Shown here piece after piece: positions 4,605 to 44,379 of a stretch of 64,000 nt of DNA. The DNA is from Moritella viscosa (GTDB lineage: Bacteria; Pseudomonadota; Gammaproteobacteria; Enterobacterales; Moritellaceae), in assembly GCA_000953735.1 (NCBI GenBank), contig LN554852.1, forward strand, positions 868,001 through 932,000. The letters run 5' to 3'. A model generated the notes under the pieces. That model saw nothing but the letters and a program-made list of their open reading frames with translations. It had not been told where the DNA came from and did not search any database. A program made the position numbers and the translations under genes. Positions within the stretch are counted from its first letter, which is position 1. Each line of letters starts with the position of its first letter.

Positions 4605-5936
4605 ATGTCGGATAATTATGAGCAAGATAATATATTATTGATTCTTGAATCTCCTTCAGTGACGAGCCTTGATAGGAAAGTGGTAGAGCAAGAAGGCTAT
4701 GTGGTTCATCGCTGTCTGAATGCTGAAGATGCTTTTTTAAATGCCTCGACGTTATCACCCACTGTGGTTCTTGTCGATGCTGAATTAGCTGATATGTCAT
4801 TAGTTGATTTTGTTAATGCCTTTTCTCGTAATCACCCCGACTCCGTTATCATCGTTTCGGTGCAAAGTAGTCAATGTGAACTTGCTGCTGAGGCGATCGT
4901 AGCTGGTGCCGCGGATTATTTACTGAAACCATTCTCTGATTATCAGTTGATTAAAGCGATAAAGCGAGCGGTGAGCTTACGCAAACCAATGGATGATTTT
5001 ATTGTTGGTTCTGCTGAAAGTCGTCAGGTTGTACAACTTGCACATCGTGCTGCACAAACCGATGCAACTGTATTTATTCGAGGTGAATCGGGCACAGGTA
5101 AAGAGTTGTTGGCTCGCTATATCCACACTCATTCTCCGCGTGCAAATGGACCGTTTGTAGCTTTTAATTGCGCCGCTATCCCTGAAACGATGATTGAAGC
5201 CATGCTATTAGGTCATACAAAGGGTGCCTTTACCGGTGCAACTAGTGACCAGATGGGGAAGTTTGAACTCGCCAATAATGGCACCATCATGTTAGATGAA
5301 ATTGCTGAAATGCCATTGCAATTACAAGCTAAGTTACTACGAGTTATCCAGGAACGAGAAGTTGAACGGCTCGGAAGTAATAAAAAAATTAAGCTTAATA
5401 TTCGTATCATCGCTGCAACAAATAAAAATTTACAAGAGGCCGTTGAAAAAGGTCTGTTCCGTCAAGATCTGTATTACCGATTAGATGTATTACCTTTGCA
5501 ATGGGGTGCGTTGCGAGAGCGTAAAGATGACATTCTGCCTCTCGCGGAGTTCTTCATTCGTAAGTATGCGCCAACGCCTGATTATTTCATAAGTAGTGCT
5601 GCCAAATTGATGCTATTAGGACATGCTTGGCCTGGTAATGTCCGTGAATTAGAAAATGTAATTCAACGGGCACTCATTATTGCTCGAGGTATGGAAATAC
5701 AAGAGGCTGATTTAATGCTACCAGCACAGTTAAATGAAAAGAAAACGGTGTTGAAAACTGTTCACCAATTTGAAGGATTGGAATCAACTAAAAAAAGGGC
5801 TGAGTACCAATATGTTTTAGATACATTAAAACAATTTAAAGGACATAGAATGAAAACCGCTGCTGCACTAGGTGTAAGCACTAGAGCGTTGCGTTACAAA
5901 ATGGTCGCAATGCGAGAGCAAGGTATAGCAATTTAA
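4605..5936 (+). CDS. lafK: LafK, sigma-54-dependent lateral flagellar master regulator
   Basis: The 443-residue protein has a receiver-like N-terminal domain (about 8-115), an AAA+ sigma-54 interaction domain (about 130-365) and a Fis-type helix-turn-helix at the C-terminus. The Walker A motif GESGTGKE starts at residue 160, and the sigma-54-contacting GAFTGA loop is at 207-212, so it should activate RpoN promoters. The receiver keeps D58 at the phosphorylation position but has LLILESP where an acidic pair normally sits, so control by phosphorylation is doubtful. It is co-transcribed with motY and the fliE-J genes and probably activates the flgB operon promoter seen at 13074. Confidence 0.93.
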   Translation: MSDNYEQDNILLILESPSVTSLDRKVVEQEGYVVHRCLNAEDAFLNASTLSPTVVLVDAELADMSLVDFVNAFSRNHPDSVIIVSVQSSQCELAAEAIVAGAADYLLKPFSDYQLIKAIKRAVSLRKPMDDFIVGSAESRQVVQLAHRAAQTDATVFIRGESGTGKELLARYIHTHSPRANGPFVAFNCAAIPETMIEAMLLGHTKGAFTGATSDQMGKFELANNGTIMLDEIAEMPLQLQAKLLRVIQEREVERLGSNKKIKLNIRIIAATNKNLQEAVEKGLFRQDLYYRLDVLPLQWGALRERKDDILPLAEFFIRKYAPTPDYFISSAAKLMLLGHAWPGNVRELENVIQRALIIARGMEIQEADLMLPAQLNEKKTVLKTVHQFEGLESTKKRAEYQYVLDTLKQFKGHRMKTAAALGVSTRALRYKMVAMREQGIAI

Positions 5937-5947
5937 CTGGTAATAAT

Positions 5948-6277
5948 ATGAAAATCGAAGCAAATACCCAATCAATTAATTTGATGAATAAAATGGAGCT
6001 AATGAAGCTTCAAGCTGGTAATGAAATTGAAAGTAATCCATTAGGTTCAAATCAAGCGGTATCATTTAACCAGACAATGAAAATGATGGTCAGTGATATT
6101 AATCAGCAGCAGTTAAAAGCTAATGGCATGATGTCAGCCGTCGATTCAGGTCGTAGTGATGACTTAGTTGGTGCGATGGTTATGACAAAAAAAGCGGATT
6201 TAAGTTTTTCGGTATTAATGCAAGTTAGAAATAAGTTAATGACCGGTTTTGATAATATTATGCGTATACCGTTGTAG
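5948..6277 (+). CDS. fliE: FliE, basal body MS ring-rod junction protein
   Basis: The 109-residue protein has the FliE C-terminal half, with VSFNQTMKMMVSDINQQQ and the ending SFSVLMQVRNKLMTGFDNIM. FliE joins the MS ring to the proximal rod and is exported early. It lies 11 bases after lafK and 8 bases before fliF, in the expected gene order. Confidence 0.94.
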   Translation: MKIEANTQSINLMNKMELMKLQAGNEIESNPLGSNQAVSFNQTMKMMVSDINQQQLKANGMMSAVDSGRSDDLVGAMVMTKKADLSFSVLMQVRNKLMTGFDNIMRIPL

Positions 6278-37284: not shown

Positions 37285-37415
37285 GTTTTATGAATTCAGT
37301 AATTTAATTAAAGAGATTTGAATCAAATTGGTTATGATGTATAGCAAAATTTTTTAAATGAAATTATCTATAGATTCACCGATTTTTCTATCTGATTGCT
37401 TTTTAAAGAGTACAT

Positions 37416-38708
37416 TTACCTTCTTCTAGATGGTAAAGATTGATCGAGACGTCCTATAATACAGAGTAGTGATAGTAACCAAGTACTATCAAAGCTGCCT
37501 CCTGAAGCTGCTTTTTTCTCATTTATGTTAATTCCCCCTAACGTATTTTCAGCTATCGCGATTGTGAGTTGGTATGTGCTTTCTATTGAGTTAGCTATAA
37601 CCCAATTTGAGTCCGTTGTTATGTTGAATATAATGTTATTGGTTGAATCTTGATACCAGTCATTAGCGGATAATAATTGGTATTTTCCTTGATTACTTAA
37701 GGCGTAAATTAATAAGGATTTTGGTAGCGGTTGAGAAAATTTAAGGTTTATTTTTGTTTGCTCCAATATATTTGAAGGAACGGCTAAATCCAGAGACAGG
37801 TTTCCCCAAGGGTAAGTAATTCCTGGTTGACCTAAGCTGGAATCTAAATTAGGAAAATCATCACTGCTATCAGGATTTGGTACCTCAAGGTACATTGAGG
37901 CAACAATGACATTTTTTATTGTTAGTGGATCACTTGTTTCAACGGTTAAATGTTGCTTATTCTTAGTGAGTAATCCAGTGACTTTCTGTGGATTTAGCGC
38001 TGAATCACCAAACTCTAATGCGTCAATTATGGAGTCATCATCTGAATCCAGTGGGTTATTGTGATCTGAACCTAATTCTATAAAATCTGAGATACCGTCG
38101 TTGTCGGTATCTAATTTGTTTGGATTAAGCCCGAGTGAAAGTGCAATTTGGTCATCGATACCATCTTGGTTATAATCTGTATTTACTTGAACAATATTAC
38201 CCACGAAATCGGGTTCAATCGTGAGCGGGAAGACATTGTATATTTTAGTTCCTGGGATGCCATCATTCCCATCAACCTCCCTGTCTATGGTCTCAATTAG
38301 AAACTTGGCCCCATTTTTATGGATACGGAATGTGGTTGTGGTGTTCGCTATTGGGTTACCTAAGCTTGGATTATAAACTTGTAAGGCATAAGCAAGCGTT
38401 ATAGTACTATCATTATTGCGGATAAAGTGCAGAATATCATGAGATTTATCTGCGTCATCAGGATCATGCAGTAGATAGTTAAAACCAACAGAAAGGGTCG
38501 TACCAGAAAGCGTTGCAGTATCGGTGTCAAAGTCCCATGTCCATCGAACTTTTTTAACGCCTACGCCCAAAATACTACCCAGCGGTGCTGCACGCATCGT
38601 AATACTATATTCTCCCTGATATTGGCCTGTTGTAGGTACACTTGCGTACAGTATTGAGCTTGGTAGGGTAAATGTTACAAACAAAATTAAGAGTGAACGT
38701 ATTACCAT
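37416..38708 (-). CDS. Secreted calcium-repeat protein with GlyGly-CTERM sorting signal
   Basis: A 430-residue exported protein with a signal peptide at about 1-22. The N-terminal domain is shared with the proteins at 40815 and 42356 (GQYQGEYSITM, then WTWDFD, YALQVYNPSLGNP, and DGNDGIPGTKIYNVFPLTIE). Thrombospondin type-3-like acidic repeats follow at about 180-235 (DTDNDGISD, DSDDDSIID). The C-terminus reads GGSFDSTWLLSLLCIIG followed by an arginine-rich end, the GlyGly-CTERM pattern for rhombosortase cleavage and surface display after type II secretion (family knowledge). Its start overlaps the end of the TonB-receptor gene by 7 bases. The function is unknown; a ligand-capture partner of the receptor is my inference. 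Confidence 0.75.
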   Translation of the reverse strand: MVIRSLLILFVTFTLPSSILYASVPTTGQYQGEYSITMRAAPLGSILGVGVKKVRWTWDFDTDTATLSGTTLSVGFNYLLHDPDDADKSHDILHFIRNNDSTITLAYALQVYNPSLGNPIANTTTTFRIHKNGAKFLIETIDREVDGNDGIPGTKIYNVFPLTIEPDFVGNIVQVNTDYNQDGIDDQIALSLGLNPNKLDTDNDGISDFIELGSDHNNPLDSDDDSIIDALEFGDSALNPQKVTGLLTKNKQHLTVETSDPLTIKNVIVASMYLEVPNPDSSDDFPNLDSSLGQPGITYPWGNLSLDLAVPSNILEQTKINLKFSQPLPKSLLIYALSNQGKYQLLSANDWYQDSTNNIIFNITTDSNWVIANSIESTYQLTIAIAENTLGGININEKKAASGGSFDSTWLLSLLCIIGRLDQSLPSRRR

Positions 38709-40806
38709 GTGTATGTAACTCCAATAATTGCATTGATGCCAGGTCCTGGGATAAATGTTGGTAATTCGGGGGCGCCTTGTCCTCGAATAACGTAAGCTGA
38801 TTGATAATTAGTGTTGGTTAGATTATTAACTTCGAAAAATATTTTAGGTCCTTTTTGTATCTCATATCCCAATTTTACCCCTAAAAGAAAATAAGGATCT
38901 TGTGTATTCTTATTGGAATTAAGGTGATCGGTATAGGTTGAGGTTGGTTGCCATGTAAAATTGGGGATAATTCGCCAGCCAGAAGATAACTTATAATCAA
39001 CCTGTCCTTGAATTAAATGAACTGGCACACCTGCAATTTGATTATGATGATATGGCCCATCTTTAAAATAAAAATTGCTCCAGTTATATAAAAGTTGGGC
39101 CGACAGTTGATCCTCTTTCATTATCCAATCAGTGCTTTGGTGTTTAATCGCTACCTCTAAGCCATGATGAATTGTATTACCTTGATAATTAATTGTTTTT
39201 CCGTTTACGGCAAAATCACCAACGACAGAAATCAATTCATTTTCAACGGCAGAATAATACCAAGAAGCACTGATATTTAAGTGATTACTTTTTATTTCTG
39301 CCCCTATCTCTCCAGTTAATGCAGTCTGTGCTTCTAATGCATTAATGTAAACATGATTGTTTAGAGGATCTGTTGGATTTGCTGAAACGGTTGCGAGTTG
39401 CCAAAAGTTTGGGGACTCCGAACTACCACTTAAGTTGGCGTATAAACGCGTTTGTTCGGCTAGTTGATAGATGAAACCAAGTTTAGGGTTAAGAATTTGG
39501 TAAGTAAACAAACTATCTAAGACCCCTGGGTTCATCTTATCCGTTATCTTTCGTTCGTTATATACCAGCTGAAGTGATGCTAAGACTTGTAGATCTCGTA
39601 GTAATTCATAGCGAATTTGCCCACCCAGCACTGCATTACTAGCTTGTAGATCCATTTGTGCAAAAGCAGACATAAGTTTGCTAGTTACTGGATGTACCGA
39701 GTTAATTTCTCGTAGCATGTTGCCTGTATTAGCTGACATAAAAAAGAGATAATTTCGTTGATAATATTCATCGGTGAAAATATCCCATTCTGCACTGTAG
39801 TCTATTCCCATATTCCCATATTCCCATAGGACGTATTAGCTTGTGTTAATGGGTCTCTAAACTGATCTTCTAATGATTCAAAATAAAAACCTAATTTTTG
39901 AGTCGTTATTTTACTCAACCATTCTGTTTTGTTTGCAATACGTAGTTGCTTTGTATATCGGAAAGGTTTTCGTATTGGAATATTCAGCAACTTATCCATT
40001 GGTTCGTTGCCTTCGTCCATAACTTGATCTGATGAGAGTTTGGCACGTTCTTTTGTTAGTAAAAAAGGAATGTTAAAATTATTTTTGGTAAAAGAAAGAT
40101 AAGTTCTGTTATCCCAATCTATACCAGTATAACCAATATTTAAGGCTATATTTTGGCGCAGTGCTTCACTGTTATTTCGATAACCCTCTTGCTGACTGTG
40201 AGAAGAAGATAGAAAGTAGTCCCAATTACCTATTTGTTGAGCGAGCATTCCCGTTGCTTTGTATAGCCCATAAGAGCCTAACTCTAATTGAACTTGATTG
40301 ATTGCATTTTTGCCTGTTTTATTGTGAAAATTAATAGCTCCCCCCAGCGTGGTTGCTCCGTAACGCATGCCATTTGCACCTCGGTATACGCTGATTAAAT
40401 CAGCTTGTTCTGGGTCGACTAATCCGATAATGAAGGACCCATCTGCTTGGTTAAGCGTTAAACCGTCATTGAGCAGCTGGATACCACGATTCACTGGATT
40501 ATCCTGAATTCCTGAACCTCGAATATTAATCCGAGGTTGATCATTACCACCAAAATACTCTTGGACCACGATACCAATTTGCTGATTTAATACTTTAGCC
40601 AATGAGGATTGATTGCCGCCAAGAGAACTAGTTTCGATAAGATTTGTACCACCGGCTACTTGCTCTAACTCTTCTTCTAACAATTGGAGCTCTATATCTT
40701 CCTGTTGTTGGCCGATAATTAGCATCGTTTCTTGCTGTGGCTGTGCCCAAGACATTGAACTTACTGTGGCAATGTATGCCACAGTTATCATATTAATTCT
40801 CTTCAT
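38702..40806 (-). pseudogene. TonB-dependent receptor, frame broken by an 8-bp repeat (possibly phase-variable)
   Basis: Two overlapping frames together encode one receptor. The upstream part (40806 to 39802) has a signal peptide, a TonB-box-like ETMLIIG, and the plug domain with INIRGSGIQDNPVNRGIQLL and YRGANGMRYGATTLGGAINF. The downstream part (39811 to 38702) holds beta-barrel strands and the typical aromatic C-terminus VTYTW. They are separated by three copies of an 8-bp unit at 39804-39827. With two copies the frame is continuous, at 698 residues, which is normal for this family. The ATG at 40806 is preferred over the upstream start at 40872 because it gives a clean signal peptide. The ligand is unknown; nearby Fur-like sites suggest iron or heme. 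Confidence 0.85.
39804..39827 (-). repeat. Three tandem copies of an 8-bp unit at the receptor frameshift
   Basis: ATTCCCAT occurs three times without interruption on the plus strand (ATGGGAAT on the coding strand). The coding frame before the array terminates at TAG just after it; removing one unit joins ...SYGNMGI to DYSAEW in frame. Copy numbers of 2, 5 and so on would be ON; three, the present state, is OFF. Confidence 0.95.
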
Positions 40807-40814
40807 TGCAGGGT

Positions 40815-42302
40815 CTATACCTTCGCCACACGTCGATGAATAGTTAATAAGCCACAGATAAGGAGCGACCACCAGTCTAAGCTACCACCTGATTTTGTTG
40901 GCTTAGCGGGATCTGTTGGCTTGATAGGGTCTGTTGGTTTGGCAGGATCTGTTGGCTTGATAGGGTCTGTTGGTTTGACAGGGGGGACTTTTAGATCTTC
41001 CGTTGTCGCAAATATGAATTCAATGCCTTCATTTGGAAACCCTGGTGTGCTTGATATGTTAATCGAGATTTCATTCGGATTCACTTGTTTCCATTGTATT
41101 TTTTCAAAGCTTTGTTCGACACGGCCTGTTGTAAAATTAAGCCCTTTTTTGATTCGATAAATTTCAAGTCCGACAGGTTGTTGATCAAATATCATCTTGA
41201 AAGGTAATACCGGAGTCATGGTATTATTATCAAACATAAACCCCACATTACCTAATTTATAATTAAGTGTTTTACCTTGTGTGTTGGTCCCCGGTGGCAA
41301 TTCACCCACCAAAGTATGAAGAGGAGATATGGAAATATCGAATGGTTTAAAAAAGGCTTTAGACATACCTACAGACTTGCTATCTGTACCCACAGAATAG
41401 ATACTGACGTTACGAAAGTATTGTAAAGATACTCCAGATAATATATTTGTATTATTAGCATAATCTCCGGATTCATGTGCATCAGATAAACCATCAGCAT
41501 CACTATCTTTACCACGAATATAAGCGGGTGTTTCAATTATATCATCGAGGCCGTCACCATCGGTATCCGTTTTTGATGGATCTAAATAAAGTAATTTTGC
41601 CATCGCATCGCTGATACCATCCGTATTACTATCTTTCAGTGAATCAACAACCATATTTGGCGCGTTATATTCGATTTGTACAATGGCAGGAAAAACGCTA
41701 GCCAAACGAGTGCCAGGAACACCATCAGGCTCAATTCCATTTTCAACATCGGCAGTACTGATCGAAACAATATCGCTACTATTTTTTACAACATGAAAAC
41801 TAGTGATAGACTCGCCAATAGGGTAATCCTTGACACCATCAACCTTGATAGGTGGCTTTACATACATTTTCTGAGCATATCTAATACTGTAGAGATCAGT
41901 CGATTCATCATAATTGAGTGGTAATCGCACTTCATCAATGGCTGAAATAGTGATGGTTTTATCCTGTTTTTTATTTTCAATTTCACTAAGATTAAAAGCT
42001 TGAAAAGGGACGTAAAACGAACTCATGGCGAAAATTGTACTGCCACCAATGGTAACTATATCGTTGTCAAAATCCCAGCGCCATACTCCATCTTTAATGG
42101 TTGATCCTAATGTCATATATTTTTTACCTTGCAAGGCAAAACTGGGCCACGGTTGTCCTCCAATACCGTTATCTTTGTGCGCATTCATGGTTAATGAATA
42201 ATATCCTAGATAGTTACCTGTGATTTTTTCTGCGAATACAGAGTGAGAAAATATAGTAGCTGGTAGTACTATAGTCAGAAATAGTGTTTTGTTAAATTTC
42301 AT
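40815..42302 (-). CDS. Secreted calcium-repeat protein with Pro-rich linker and GlyGly-CTERM signal
   Basis: A 495-residue exported protein (signal peptide about 1-24). The shared N-terminal domain has GNYLGYYSLTM, WRWDFD and DGVPGTRLASVFPAIVQIEY. Acidic thrombospondin type-3-like repeats follow (DSNTDGISD, DTDGDGLDD, DSDADGLSD, about 225-280), then a beta domain. Next comes a spacer of repeated PTDPIK/PTDPAK units (about 443-472) and the C-terminal signal SGGSLDWWSLLICGLL, ending in HRRVAKV. This is a strong GlyGly-CTERM candidate, and the spacer would hold the protein away from the surface. It lies 8 bases upstream of the TonB-receptor start, so the two are probably co-expressed. The biochemical role is unknown. 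Confidence 0.78.
   Translation of the reverse strand: MKFNKTLFLTIVLPATIFSHSVFAEKITGNYLGYYSLTMNAHKDNGIGGQPWPSFALQGKKYMTLGSTIKDGVWRWDFDNDIVTIGGSTIFAMSSFYVPFQAFNLSEIENKKQDKTITISAIDEVRLPLNYDESTDLYSIRYAQKMYVKPPIKVDGVKDYPIGESITSFHVVKNSSDIVSISTADVENGIEPDGVPGTRLASVFPAIVQIEYNAPNMVVDSLKDSNTDGISDAMAKLLYLDPSKTDTDGDGLDDIIETPAYIRGKDSDADGLSDAHESGDYANNTNILSGVSLQYFRNVSIYSVGTDSKSVGMSKAFFKPFDISISPLHTLVGELPPGTNTQGKTLNYKLGNVGFMFDNNTMTPVLPFKMIFDQQPVGLEIYRIKKGLNFTTGRVEQSFEKIQWKQVNPNEISINISSTPGFPNEGIEFIFATTEDLKVPPVKPTDPIKPTDPAKPTDPIKPTDPAKPTKSGGSLDWWSLLICGLLTIHRRVAKV
40897..40990 (-). repeat. Tandem 18-bp repeats encoding the PTDP(I/A)K linker
   Basis: Alternating near-identical 18-bp units with GGATCTGTTGG and AGGGTCTGTTGG cores on the plus strand. 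Each encodes six residues (KPTDPI or KPTDPA). Whole-unit changes would keep the frame and only alter linker length. Confidence 0.85.
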
Positions 42303-42316
42303 TGTAGATCCCTAGT

Positions 42317-42340
42317 AAGGAGGTCGCTTGGTACCTCCTT
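42317..42340 (-). promoter_or_regulatory. Hairpin containing a perfect Shine-Dalgarno and its complement
   Basis: AAGGAGGT and ACCTCCTT form a perfect 8-bp stem with an 8-base loop. It lies 15 bases upstream of the start codon of the 495-residue protein gene and 15 bases downstream of the previous gene's stop. It could stabilise or process the message. The actual ribosome site appears to be TAGGG nearer the ATG. Confidence 0.6.
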
Positions 42341-42355
42341 TAGCCTAATTTATGT

Positions 42356-42847
42356 TTAGTTTGCTGAACCAGTCCAGTTCAACTCAATGTCCCAAGGGAA
42401 AAGTCCATAAATAGCTTCACCGATGACACCATCGGCATCAGAATCAATAGTTTTGAATTCTAACCCAAATTCAGTATCTGTAATTTCAAATGTGCTACTC
42501 GTCTGTGCTTTTGGGTAAAAATATATAGGGTTATAAGCTTGGAATACATAGTTGATAGTGTAAGTTCCATCTTCGTTATCTATGAGTGAGATAGGAGCGT
42601 GCGCCGCGTAACCGACCGGAAATGGTATGTGGGCGTTTTTGATATAGCCCGCATTAATAGTGACAATTTTATTATCAAAATCCCATTTCCATTGATTGGC
42701 TTGTGTGCTTTTTGCTTTGACTACATTATCAGTAGTTCTGACTTCAAGGTTGTAAGTACCAGAATAGTTACCGCTTATGTTGGTTGTACCTGCAAAGCTA
42801 GCTGTTGAAAATAGTGCTAGTGCAACAATTGTCATATTAGTTTTCAT
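42356..42847 (-). CDS. Small secreted paralogue of the GlyGly-CTERM proteins, without anchor
   Basis: A 163-residue protein with a signal peptide (about 1-19, ending SFAG). It consists only of the domain shared with the two larger neighbours: GNYSGTYNLEV, WKWDFD, YVFQAYNPIYF, and DADGVIGEAIYGLFPWDIEL. It lacks the calcium repeats and the C-terminal sorting signal, so it is probably secreted or periplasmic. It is the first gene of the apparent operon leading into the TonB receptor, with GGAG ahead of the ATG and a Fur-box-like site just upstream. Confidence 0.75.
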   Translation of the reverse strand: MKTNMTIVALALFSTASFAGTTNISGNYSGTYNLEVRTTDNVVKAKSTQANQWKWDFDNKIVTINAGYIKNAHIPFPVGYAAHAPISLIDNEDGTYTINYVFQAYNPIYFYPKAQTSSTFEITDTEFGLEFKTIDSDADGVIGEAIYGLFPWDIELNWTGSAN

Positions 42848-42859
42848 TTTTAACTCCAG

Positions 42860-42874
42860 TGTTAATAGTTATCA
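42860..42874 (-). promoter_or_regulatory. Fur-box-like site upstream of the secreted-protein/TonB-receptor operon
   Basis: On the minus strand TGATAACTATTAACA matches 12 of the 14 defined bases of the 7-1-7 Fur consensus TGATAATnATTATCA. It lies 13 bases before the start of the 163-residue gene. A second perfect inverted repeat, TGATAAATATCA, occurs at 42923-42934. Confidence 0.55.
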
Positions 42875-42951
42875 TTTAGATTTGAATTATTGAATTATTG
42901 AATTATTTTTCACTAGCACAAATGATAAATATCAAGTTAGGAAAAATGGCG

Positions 42952-43392
42952 TTACCATTGGATATAGAACATACCTTTTGCGAGAAAGATGATGGCTAGC
43001 ATGTGGAAAAATACACTTAAGTGTGTGTATTTAAATATTTTTGTTGTCATATCCCCACAAACAGAGTGCTTCATAGCAAGAATAAAGTGGATTAATACGC
43101 TCACTGCCAATATAATTTTGATTGTCAATAATGTAGAAAAAGATGTTGCAAAGGGCGATGGCAGTGGACTCAAGTGGTGGTAGCCCATAAAGCCCCCGGT
43201 AATGAATAGCGTTGCAACGATGAAGGGCATAATTTTGCGGCCTCGTAAGTGTATACCTTGCTCAACTAACGACATGGTTTTAGCTGGTAAGTGTTGTCTA
43301 ATACCTTCCAAAATTAATACTTCAAACGCAACAACCCCAATGAAAATGGTTGCACAGAGTAGATGCAACCCAACTAATAAACCGTAATGCAT
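42952..43392 (-). CDS. Four-helix membrane protein, CopD-like
   Basis: A 146-residue protein with four membrane helices and conserved-looking histidines inside or near them (LHLL near 10, LIHFI, THLSVFFHML). The layout resembles CopD-like or heme-binding small membrane proteins; I cannot name the family with certainty. The ATG follows AAAGGATT. It is divergent from the Crp/Fnr regulator, with a strong Fur-like site between them, suggesting metal- or redox-responsive expression. Confidence 0.55.
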   Translation of the reverse strand: MHYGLLVGLHLLCATIFIGVVAFEVLILEGIRQHLPAKTMSLVEQGIHLRGRKIMPFIVATLFITGGFMGYHHLSPLPSPFATSFSTLLTIKIILAVSVLIHFILAMKHSVCGDMTTKIFKYTHLSVFFHMLAIIFLAKGMFYIQW

Positions 43393-43432
43393 GATGAATC
43401 CTTTAGTGTAATGATAATTTAAAAAGTGGTGA

Positions 43433-43447
43433 TGATAATGATTGTCA
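43433..43447. promoter_or_regulatory. Near-consensus Fur box in a divergent promoter region
   Basis: TGATAATGATTGTCA matches the Fur 7-1-7 consensus TGATAATnATTATCA at 13 of the 14 defined bases. It lies between the divergent starts of the CopD-like gene (43392) and the Crp/Fnr gene (43504). Confidence 0.7.
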
Positions 43448-43503
43448 TTCAGGTTAACATGTGAATATAGATTTCAAATGACATTTATCAACGAGAGTAA
43501 AAA

Positions 43504-44262
43504 ATGGATTCACATACTCATACTCTAATTAATAACACCTTTATTTTTTCTGAGATCTCAATAGATATTAAAACCTCACTTTGTAAAGGCATGCAGGTTA
43601 TTCCGCTCTCTCAGGGTAAACATATCTTTCATTCTGGTGATGATGCTAAACGATTTTATGTTGTTAAATCTGGAGAAGTAACGCTCTATCGTTTCTCTCC
43701 AGAAGGAGATGAAAAGGTATTCCAGCAAGTTATACGGGGCAATGCCATTGCGGAGGCTGCGATGTTCATGTTACCAAGCCTTTATCCCGTGAGTGCTAAA
43801 GCTAAAACTGATGCTGTTGTGCTTTCATTTTCGCGAAATGTGTTACTAGATTTATGCACATCGAATGCGACATACGCTTTACAGCTTTTAAGTGCGATGG
43901 CCTTGAAGCTCAATCAAGCAGTTAATCGAGTAGACCAATTGACCTTGAAAGGGGCTAATCAACGCTTGGTTTCATATTTACTCGATTTATATAAGCAGCA
44001 AGGCTCTGAGTGGATGCGCTTGCCTGTTGCACATAGTGTATTGGCAGGACAATTAAATATTGCACCTGAAACATTGTCACGCCTATTCAAAAAAATGCGT
44101 GACGATGAAATAATAAGTGGTAAAGGTAGCGTTGTTGTTTTATTAGACGTTGATAGTATGTGCCGTGTGGTCAATATACCAAATCCTTTCAATACAAATG
44201 CTAGTTCGACTCAAAATGGTGCATGGGGAGGCTGTTGCAACCTAACCGGTCATTGGATTTAA
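43504..44262 (+). CDS. Crp/Fnr-family transcription regulator with Cys-containing C-terminal tail
   Basis: The 252-residue regulator has a cyclic-nucleotide-type sensor domain (about 15-130, with GKHIFHSGDDAKRFYVVKSG) and a Crp helix-turn-helix (VLAGQLNIAPETLSRLFKKM). It lacks the N-terminal cysteine cluster of Fnr, so an iron-sulfur oxygen sensor is unlikely; it is closer to Dnr/Crp-like members. The tail after the DNA-binding domain is unusual, ending NGAWGGCCNLTGHWI with a cysteine pair. The rhodanese downstream and the CopD-like protein upstream suggest a redox or sulfur/metal signal (inference). Confidence 0.8.
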   Translation: MDSHTHTLINNTFIFSEISIDIKTSLCKGMQVIPLSQGKHIFHSGDDAKRFYVVKSGEVTLYRFSPEGDEKVFQQVIRGNAIAEAAMFMLPSLYPVSAKAKTDAVVLSFSRNVLLDLCTSNATYALQLLSAMALKLNQAVNRVDQLTLKGANQRLVSYLLDLYKQQGSEWMRLPVAHSVLAGQLNIAPETLSRLFKKMRDDEIISGKGSVVVLLDVDSMCRVVNIPNPFNTNASSTQNGAWGGCCNLTGHWI

Positions 44263-44265
44263 TAC

Positions 44266-44278
44266 ATAGTTATCATTT
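44266..44278 (+). promoter_or_regulatory. Shared 13-bp motif upstream of the rhodanese gene
   Basis: ATAGTTATCATTT occurs here, at 42865-42877 (overlapping the Fur-like site) and at 47913-47925 (upstream of the aerolysin gene), each time in an intergenic region. Confidence 0.5.
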
Positions 44279-44379
44279 GAGTGTTTGTTGAATAAGATGG
44301 TTTTTAGTGATTGAAATATAGAATACAAAATGAAATAGTAGTTTAGCAAACACTTGGTATTAACTGAAAGGATAACAAC

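What the first reader, a model, noticed from the sequence alone, without database searches (positions are those of the whole stretch)
39804..39827. An 8-bp tandem repeat puts a TonB-dependent receptor out of frame: likely ON/OFF phase switch
The receptor coding sequence is intact on both sides of three perfect copies of an 8-bp unit. Three copies give a stop right after the array. Two copies would give a continuous 698-residue receptor. Removing 8 bases makes the span from 40806 to 38702 exactly 699 codons, which fits slipped-strand gain or loss rather than random decay. Neither half shows other stops. Phase-variable TonB receptors are known in pathogens such as Neisseria; an octamer switch in a marine bacterium would be notable.
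Basis: partly seen in the sequence, partly recalled or inferred. Interest (0 to 1): 0.8.

Follow-up and report, generated by a model that had tools for sequence, protein, structure and literature searches.

The report
Octamer repeat breaks receptor gene frame
In a fish-disease bacterium, a short eight-letter repeat has knocked an otherwise healthy outer-membrane receptor gene out of frame, in a way that could be reversible; a second repeat of the same size sits in front of the same gene group, but whether either works as a switch has to be shown by looking at more strains.

Summary
A perfect 26-base array (3.25 units of 8) at 39803-39828 lies inside a TonB-dependent receptor gene on the minus strand. 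Both flanking halves are stop-free, but in different frames. The genome equals Moritella viscosa 06/09/139, a salmon pathogen, in total and in all three replicon sizes. It was sequenced by 454, Illumina and PacBio, so an error is unlikely. The receptor belongs to a ~7 kb cluster absent from that site in four other Moritella. Two relatives with an intact receptor share the cluster and have no array there.

Such arrays are rare: one in 800 kb sampled elsewhere. The cluster also has its own operator motif, conserved in cluster relatives and absent from ten other Moritella.

Best reading: slippage produced an OFF state that the same process could reverse. Whether it is a selected phase switch or a strain-level lesion cannot be decided from one genome; three units is short for a fast switch. 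The receptor was not joined or mended.

The parts
39803..39828 (-). 8-bp tandem array, 3.25 perfect units, inside the receptor coding sequence; puts the two halves in different frames
   Evidence: two-unit word found only here in the genome
39829..40806 (-). upstream part of the TonB-dependent receptor gene (signal peptide by inspection, plug, first barrel strands), 326 codons
   Evidence: Pfam PF07715 E=1.1e-9; 56-58% identity to the two closest relatives, which are intact
38702..39802 (-). downstream part of the receptor gene (most of the barrel), 366 codons and stop
   Evidence: Pfam PF00593 E=2.5e-28; 51-52% identity, no gaps, to the same two relatives
42882..42907 (-). second 8-bp array, 3.25 perfect units, in the promoter region of the same operon
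42919..42935 (-). Crp-type operator-like site upstream of the operon, drifted from the relatives' consensus
   Evidence: pattern written after seeing the site
43475..43491 (-). Crp-type operator-like site between the divergent regulator and the 146-aa membrane protein gene
   Evidence: only exact match of the relatives' motif in the genome
42356..42847 (-). 163-aa probably secreted single-domain protein (similar to the N-terminal parts of the 495- and 430-aa proteins, through the relatives)
40815..42302 (-). 495-aa protein with a calcium-repeat-like region (by inspection) and GlyGly-CTERM sorting signal
   Evidence: TIGR03501 17.3 bits, cut-off 15.5, E=0.006; rhombosortase in genome
37416..38708 (-). 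430-aa related protein, choice-of-anchor U-like but below cut-off
42952..43392 (-). 146-aa membrane protein (by inspection), 75% identical in both closest cluster relatives
   Evidence: no Pfam or NCBIfam match at 0.001
43504..44262 (+). Crp/Fnr-family regulator, divergent from the operon
   Evidence: PF00027, PF13545
37330..44305 (.). approximate extent of the cluster that is absent between secF and the rhodanese-like gene in four other Moritella

Best explanation
Slipped-strand gain of a unit in a short octamer array has put this strain's receptor gene out of frame, so no full-length receptor is made: an OFF state. The same slippage can in principle undo it, so the locus would act as a low-rate translational ON/OFF switch. 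The receptor sits in an operon beside its own Crp-type regulator, probably also under iron control (Fur-like sites). A second octamer array between operator and first gene may tune the same operon by changing promoter spacing. Shown: both arrays, the frame break, stop-free halves, cluster conservation, the operator motif. Inferred: slippage as cause, reversibility, selection for switching, iron control, any effect of the promoter array.
For: The array is the only lesion seen: 326 and 366 stop-free codons, and the downstream half aligns to the two closest relatives without a gap. These relatives have receptors of 703 and 707 codons with no tandem array at that place. Divergence is highest at third codon positions in both halves (0.62-0.63 against 0.23-0.43). 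The partner genes are open. Two 8-bp arrays lie 3.1 kb apart in one operon, against one in 800 kb elsewhere. Much longer arrays exist in this genome (a heptamer of 30 copies). Sequencing combined 454, Illumina and PacBio.
Against: Only 3.25 units, below the 6-15 copies in the octamer rows I saw for H. influenzae, although one tract there spans 1 to 6. No second genome of the species could be examined, so no copy-number variation is shown. The two closest relatives have no array, so no conserved switch is seen. This strain carries 163 pseudo or partial CDSs and 49 IS elements, so a broken gene is not unusual. The only other 8-bp array in the sample is intergenic, near genes with no obvious surface role.
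Confidence: 0.48

Rival explanations
1. One-off loss of function: a slippage mutation fixed in this strain or during culture, the start of ordinary gene decay, not a selected switch.
For: Short array; 163 pseudo or partial CDSs in the strain; the two closest relatives have no array there, so no conserved switch is seen.
Against: No other lesion seen in about 692 codons; partner genes open; a second, equally rare octamer array in the same operon's promoter region.
Confidence: 0.43
2. Sequencing or assembly error in unit number.
For: Only one assembly was available here.
Against: 454, Illumina and PacBio were combined (PMC4462113, passage); a 26-bp array is far shorter than the reads (inference); an 8-bp step is not a typical error of these methods (general knowledge).
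Confidence: 0.03
3. The out-of-frame state is still productive, by re-initiation at a start codon inside the array or as a two-piece receptor.
For: The downstream half has an in-frame ATG inside the array, at 39811.
Against: That piece would lack signal peptide and plug; no two-piece TonB receptor is known to me; the two closest relatives are one piece.
Confidence: 0.03

Closest known systems
Heptamer array in the H. influenzae TonB-dependent receptor gene HI1369 (PMC2651432; abstract and passages seen)
   Same: Repeat unit that is not a multiple of three, in a TonB-dependent receptor gene; one strain (R3655) is reported as frameshifted by it
   Different: Heptamer, 8 and 13 units, copy number varies among strains; here an octamer, 3.25 units, one genome
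HmbR and HpuAB haemoglobin receptors of N. meningitidis (PMC3352162, PMC3786947; listing and start of abstract only)
   Same: TonB-dependent iron receptors with reversible switching; one listed abstract places poly-G tracts in the open reading frame
   Different: Homopolymer tracts, switching established; here an octamer, no switching shown, ligand unknown
nadA promoter of N. meningitidis: repeat tract between operators changes spacing (PMC2791445; abstract and passages)
   Same: Layout of the second array: repeat between a regulator site and the gene
   Different: TAAA tract and NadR repressor, effect shown; here TTGAATTA units, Crp-type operator, no expression data
PqqU/YncD TonB-dependent transporter (6v81, 9c4o)
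   Same: The only two PDB sequences that match the intact relative L111 at E up to 1e-5
   Different: E about 1e-20 over two parts only; NCBIfam PqqU scores far below its cut-off for window half and relative; not shown to be an orthologue

Membership tests
Repeat-mediated (slipped-strand) phase-variable genes | Perfect tandem repeat in the coding sequence with a unit not divisible by three | tested here: met
Repeat-mediated (slipped-strand) phase-variable genes | Gene otherwise intact, so unit number alone decides the frame | tested here: met
Repeat-mediated (slipped-strand) phase-variable genes | Unit number differs between isolates or cells | not testable with these tools
   one genome of this species held; no reads
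Repeat-mediated (slipped-strand) phase-variable genes | Frequent, reversible ON/OFF switching | not testable with these tools
   needs cultures or deep sequencing
Repeat-mediated (slipped-strand) phase-variable genes | Tract long enough for frequent slippage | tested here: inconclusive
   3.25 units; H. influenzae octamer rows seen have 6-15, one tract spans 1-6
TonB-dependent receptors | Plug and beta-barrel domains | tested here: met
   PF07715 on the upstream half and PF00593 on the downstream half, searched apart
Promoter-spacing phase variation (nadA type) | Repeat between regulator site and gene; unit number changes expression | tested here: inconclusive
   layout met; expression not testable here
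GlyGly-CTERM / rhombosortase cargo (495-aa partner) | TIGR03501 above cut-off and rhombosortase in the genome | tested here: met
   17.3 bits against 15.5, E=0.006; TIGR03902 161 bits against 84, while 14 of 14 control genomes match it but 0 over the cut-off; the 430-aa partner gave no TIGR03501 row

The most novel reading that the evidence does not exclude
A doubly switched iron-uptake operon: one octamer array sets transcription by spacing a private Crp-type operator from the promoter, and a second octamer array of the same size gates translation of the receptor, so that M. viscosa cells in one population differ in both level and presence of a surface receptor.
Probability: 0.17. Interest if true: 0.62.

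Novelty: new member of a known kind. Interest (0 to 1): 0.4.

Why it matters
If the array varies, M. viscosa, the agent of winter ulcer in salmon, would have a switchable surface receptor. That would bear on strain differences and on TonB-dependent receptors as vaccine antigens, a class proposed for fish pathogens including this one in PMC8954842 (passages; not this receptor in particular). It would also extend repeat-driven switching of TonB receptors to Moritella. Two octamer arrays in one operon, where such arrays are otherwise rare, give a simple testable prediction: both should vary among isolates. If neither varies, this is an ordinary strain-level broken gene.

Tried and rejected
Close relatives: the first genome-contig scan with the downstream half found none. 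Of 40 genomes (own included), 4 matched at E up to 0.001: the own genome, with its own gene and a second weak place, and 3 others weakly. The other Moritella have only distant TonB receptors: 7 of 10 match the upstream half, at 24-28% identity. In the plasmid collection 48 records match, all below 60% identity, at most 32% among the 20 listed. Of 394 order genomes, 10 match at E up to 1e-15, own included; of 24 genomes of the closest relatives' genus, 2 at 1e-40; of 369 class genomes, 2 at 1e-40, own included. One of the ten (G115, L118) is a piece at a contig end and was not used for the junction or the operator.

The junction could be judged in only 2 of the 11 loci (L110, L111). In L112-L117, L162 and L163 the alignments to the downstream half begin well inside it. 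L161 gave a value unlike the two closest relatives by alignment ends and with gaps, although by eye the conserved flanking residues are equally far apart in its protein.

A Fur box before the first gene of the window operon is not significant: 13 of 19, reached by 73 of 500 controls. No site with up to 3 mismatches exists in the window. The Fur consensus is recalled. The site between regulator and membrane-protein gene scores 15 of 19 (4 of 500). Five promoter regions of L110 and L111 score 14-16 (0 to 12 of 500). sigma-70 scans gave no more than shuffles (28 against 27.2), and terminator-like sites 7 against 4.8.

Literature: searches for Moritella with TonB-dependent, with phase variation, and M. 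viscosa with tandem repeat, listed no title or abstract opening that reports this array or phase variation in Moritella. I opened only PMC4462113, PMC2651432, PMC7074318, PMC2791445, PMC8954842 and PMC5084427, each for passages. PMC5084427 gave no octamer or minimum-unit figure that I could use. Most subscription papers are not held. The M. viscosa proteome paper PMC7074318 has no word beginning with TonB or receptor in its main text. How the public annotation of this genome labels the gene was not seen.

Full report
Observation. On the minus strand, 39803-39828 is a perfect 8-bp tandem array of 3.25 units. It lies in a TonB-dependent receptor gene that starts at 40806 and whose downstream part ends at 38702. 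The upstream part has the plug domain (PF07715) and the downstream part the barrel (PF00593), searched apart. Neither part (326 and 366 codons) has a stop outside the array, and they lie in different frames. Chance is excluded: 150 Markov resamples of the window gave no 8-bp array of three or more copies.

Organism. SecF (named by inspection) is 95-97% identical to four named Moritella. The genome (5,093,989 bases; replicons of 5,086,074, 4,059 and 3,856) equals the published figures for Moritella viscosa 06/09/139, all three replicons included (PMC4462113, passages). That paper gives 163 pseudo or partial CDSs and 49 IS elements, and sequencing by 454, Illumina and PacBio. The species causes winter ulcer in salmon, so the receptor was treated with restraint: halves searched apart, nothing joined or mended.

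Surroundings. The receptor is the third of four minus-strand genes. The others encode proteins of 163, 495 and 430 residues with no Pfam match at 0.001, related to one another through their relatives' N-terminal parts. The 495-residue one carries a GlyGly-CTERM signal above cut-off, and the genome has a rhombosortase. Upstream are a 146-residue membrane protein gene and a divergent Crp/Fnr-family regulator. In four other Moritella (L008-L011) secF is followed by the rhodanese-like gene, and roughly 37330-44305 is missing; L010 has about 720 other bases there. None of 10 other Moritella genomes matches the downstream half at 0.001, and 7 of 10 match the upstream half at 24-28% identity. The cluster was therefore gained by M. 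viscosa or lost elsewhere.

Relatives. Two genomes of one other genus in the order (G236, G175) carry the same cluster in the same order, L111 with one extra 163-like gene, and intact receptors of 703 and 707 codons. Upstream halves are 56-58% and downstream halves 51-52% identical. The downstream alignment has no gap. The alignments reach both edges of the array, one residue short in L110, and the relatives have there a short in-frame stretch without a tandem array. These are 2 of the 11 loci examined: eight (L112-L117, L162, L163) have downstream alignments that begin well inside the half, and L161 gave a different value by alignment ends, so these nine were not counted. Third codon positions differ 1.5 to 2.7 times as often as first or second ones in both halves. 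Together with the lack of other lesions this suggests a recent break; it does not date it.

Second array. At 42882-42907, 35-60 bases before the first gene of the same operon, is another perfect 8-bp array of 3.25 units with an unrelated sequence. In 800 kb of the same chromosome (40 spaced stretches) there is one 8-bp array of three or more copies, and 12 rows over all periods 5-20, some of them neighbours. At the 8-bp rate, two in the 7-kb cluster has a probability near 4e-5. Using any period 5-20 it is about 0.005 (hand calculation, after the fact). None of 13 other loci (4 Moritella, 9 loci with receptor relatives) has a perfect array of three or more copies of period 5-20; imperfect in-frame repeats do occur there.

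Operator. A palindrome TTGAYAAATGTCAT stands in 8 of 8 loci L110-L117, two or three sites each, upstream of the receptor or its operon and of the regulator gene by the positions. L162 (Diaphorobacter) has it between regulator and receptor; L163 has looser sites beside its regulator gene, not directly before the receptor. In L161 the held contig shows no regulator gene and only a weaker site. In M. viscosa the motif matches once in the whole genome, in this cluster, and 0 times in 10 other Moritella. A drifted copy stands at 42919-42935. The patterns were written after I had seen these sequences. The second array lies between this drifted operator and a weak, not significant Fur-like site. From the operator centre to the AATGAT word is 52 bases, against 39, 42 and 43 in three promoters of relatives. 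An AATAAT word recurs in the units and could serve as a -10 box, but promoter scans do not exceed chance.

Mechanism. Slippage at the coding array is the best account of the frame break. A reversible OFF state follows if slippage also runs the other way, which is not shown. Three units is short. In the H. influenzae passages the octamer rows have 6-15 units, and one tract varies from 1 to 6 (PMC2651432). That paper also describes a heptamer in a TonB receptor gene, so the kind is known. The promoter array resembles nadA spacing control (PMC2791445, abstract and passages) in layout only.

Verdict. The switch itself is unproven and about as likely as a strain-level lesion.

Noticed in passing
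40896-40983: 36-bp (2 x 18) in-frame repeat in the 495-aa partner encodes a Pro-Thr-Asp-Pro-Lys-type linker before the sorting signal; the relative L111 has a 30-bp array (4629-4733) and L110 a 15-bp one (6052-6089) in the corresponding gene's end, so the stalk varies in length without changing frame.
   Followed up: partly
L136:3933-4143 (G000 C1:4303933-4304143): Heptamer array of 30 copies directly at the 3' end of an acetyltransferase-like gene, beside flippase-like and transposase-like genes (all named by inspection); a likely hypervariable locus in M. viscosa.
   Followed up: partly
L156:11323-11388 (C1:4436323-4436388): Heptamer array of 9.4 copies, intergenic, about 260 bp before a chemoreceptor-like gene (named by inspection).
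   Followed up: no
L140:7115-7151 (C1:432115-432151): 8-bp array of 4.6 copies about 45 bp before a phosphatase-like gene (named by inspection); the only other 8-bp array of three or more copies in the 800-kb sample.
   Followed up: no
43475-43491 and loci L110-L117, L162: Conserved operator TTGAYAAATGTCAT next to a Crp-family regulator and TonB receptor in several genera, also on a Diaphorobacter plasmid: a local regulon unknown to me (no literature search made on it).
   Followed up: partly
37330-44305: About 7 kb present in M. viscosa and absent between secF and the rhodanese-like gene in four other Moritella; no integrase or transposase seen, by inspection, among its ORFs of 80 aa or more.
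   Followed up: partly
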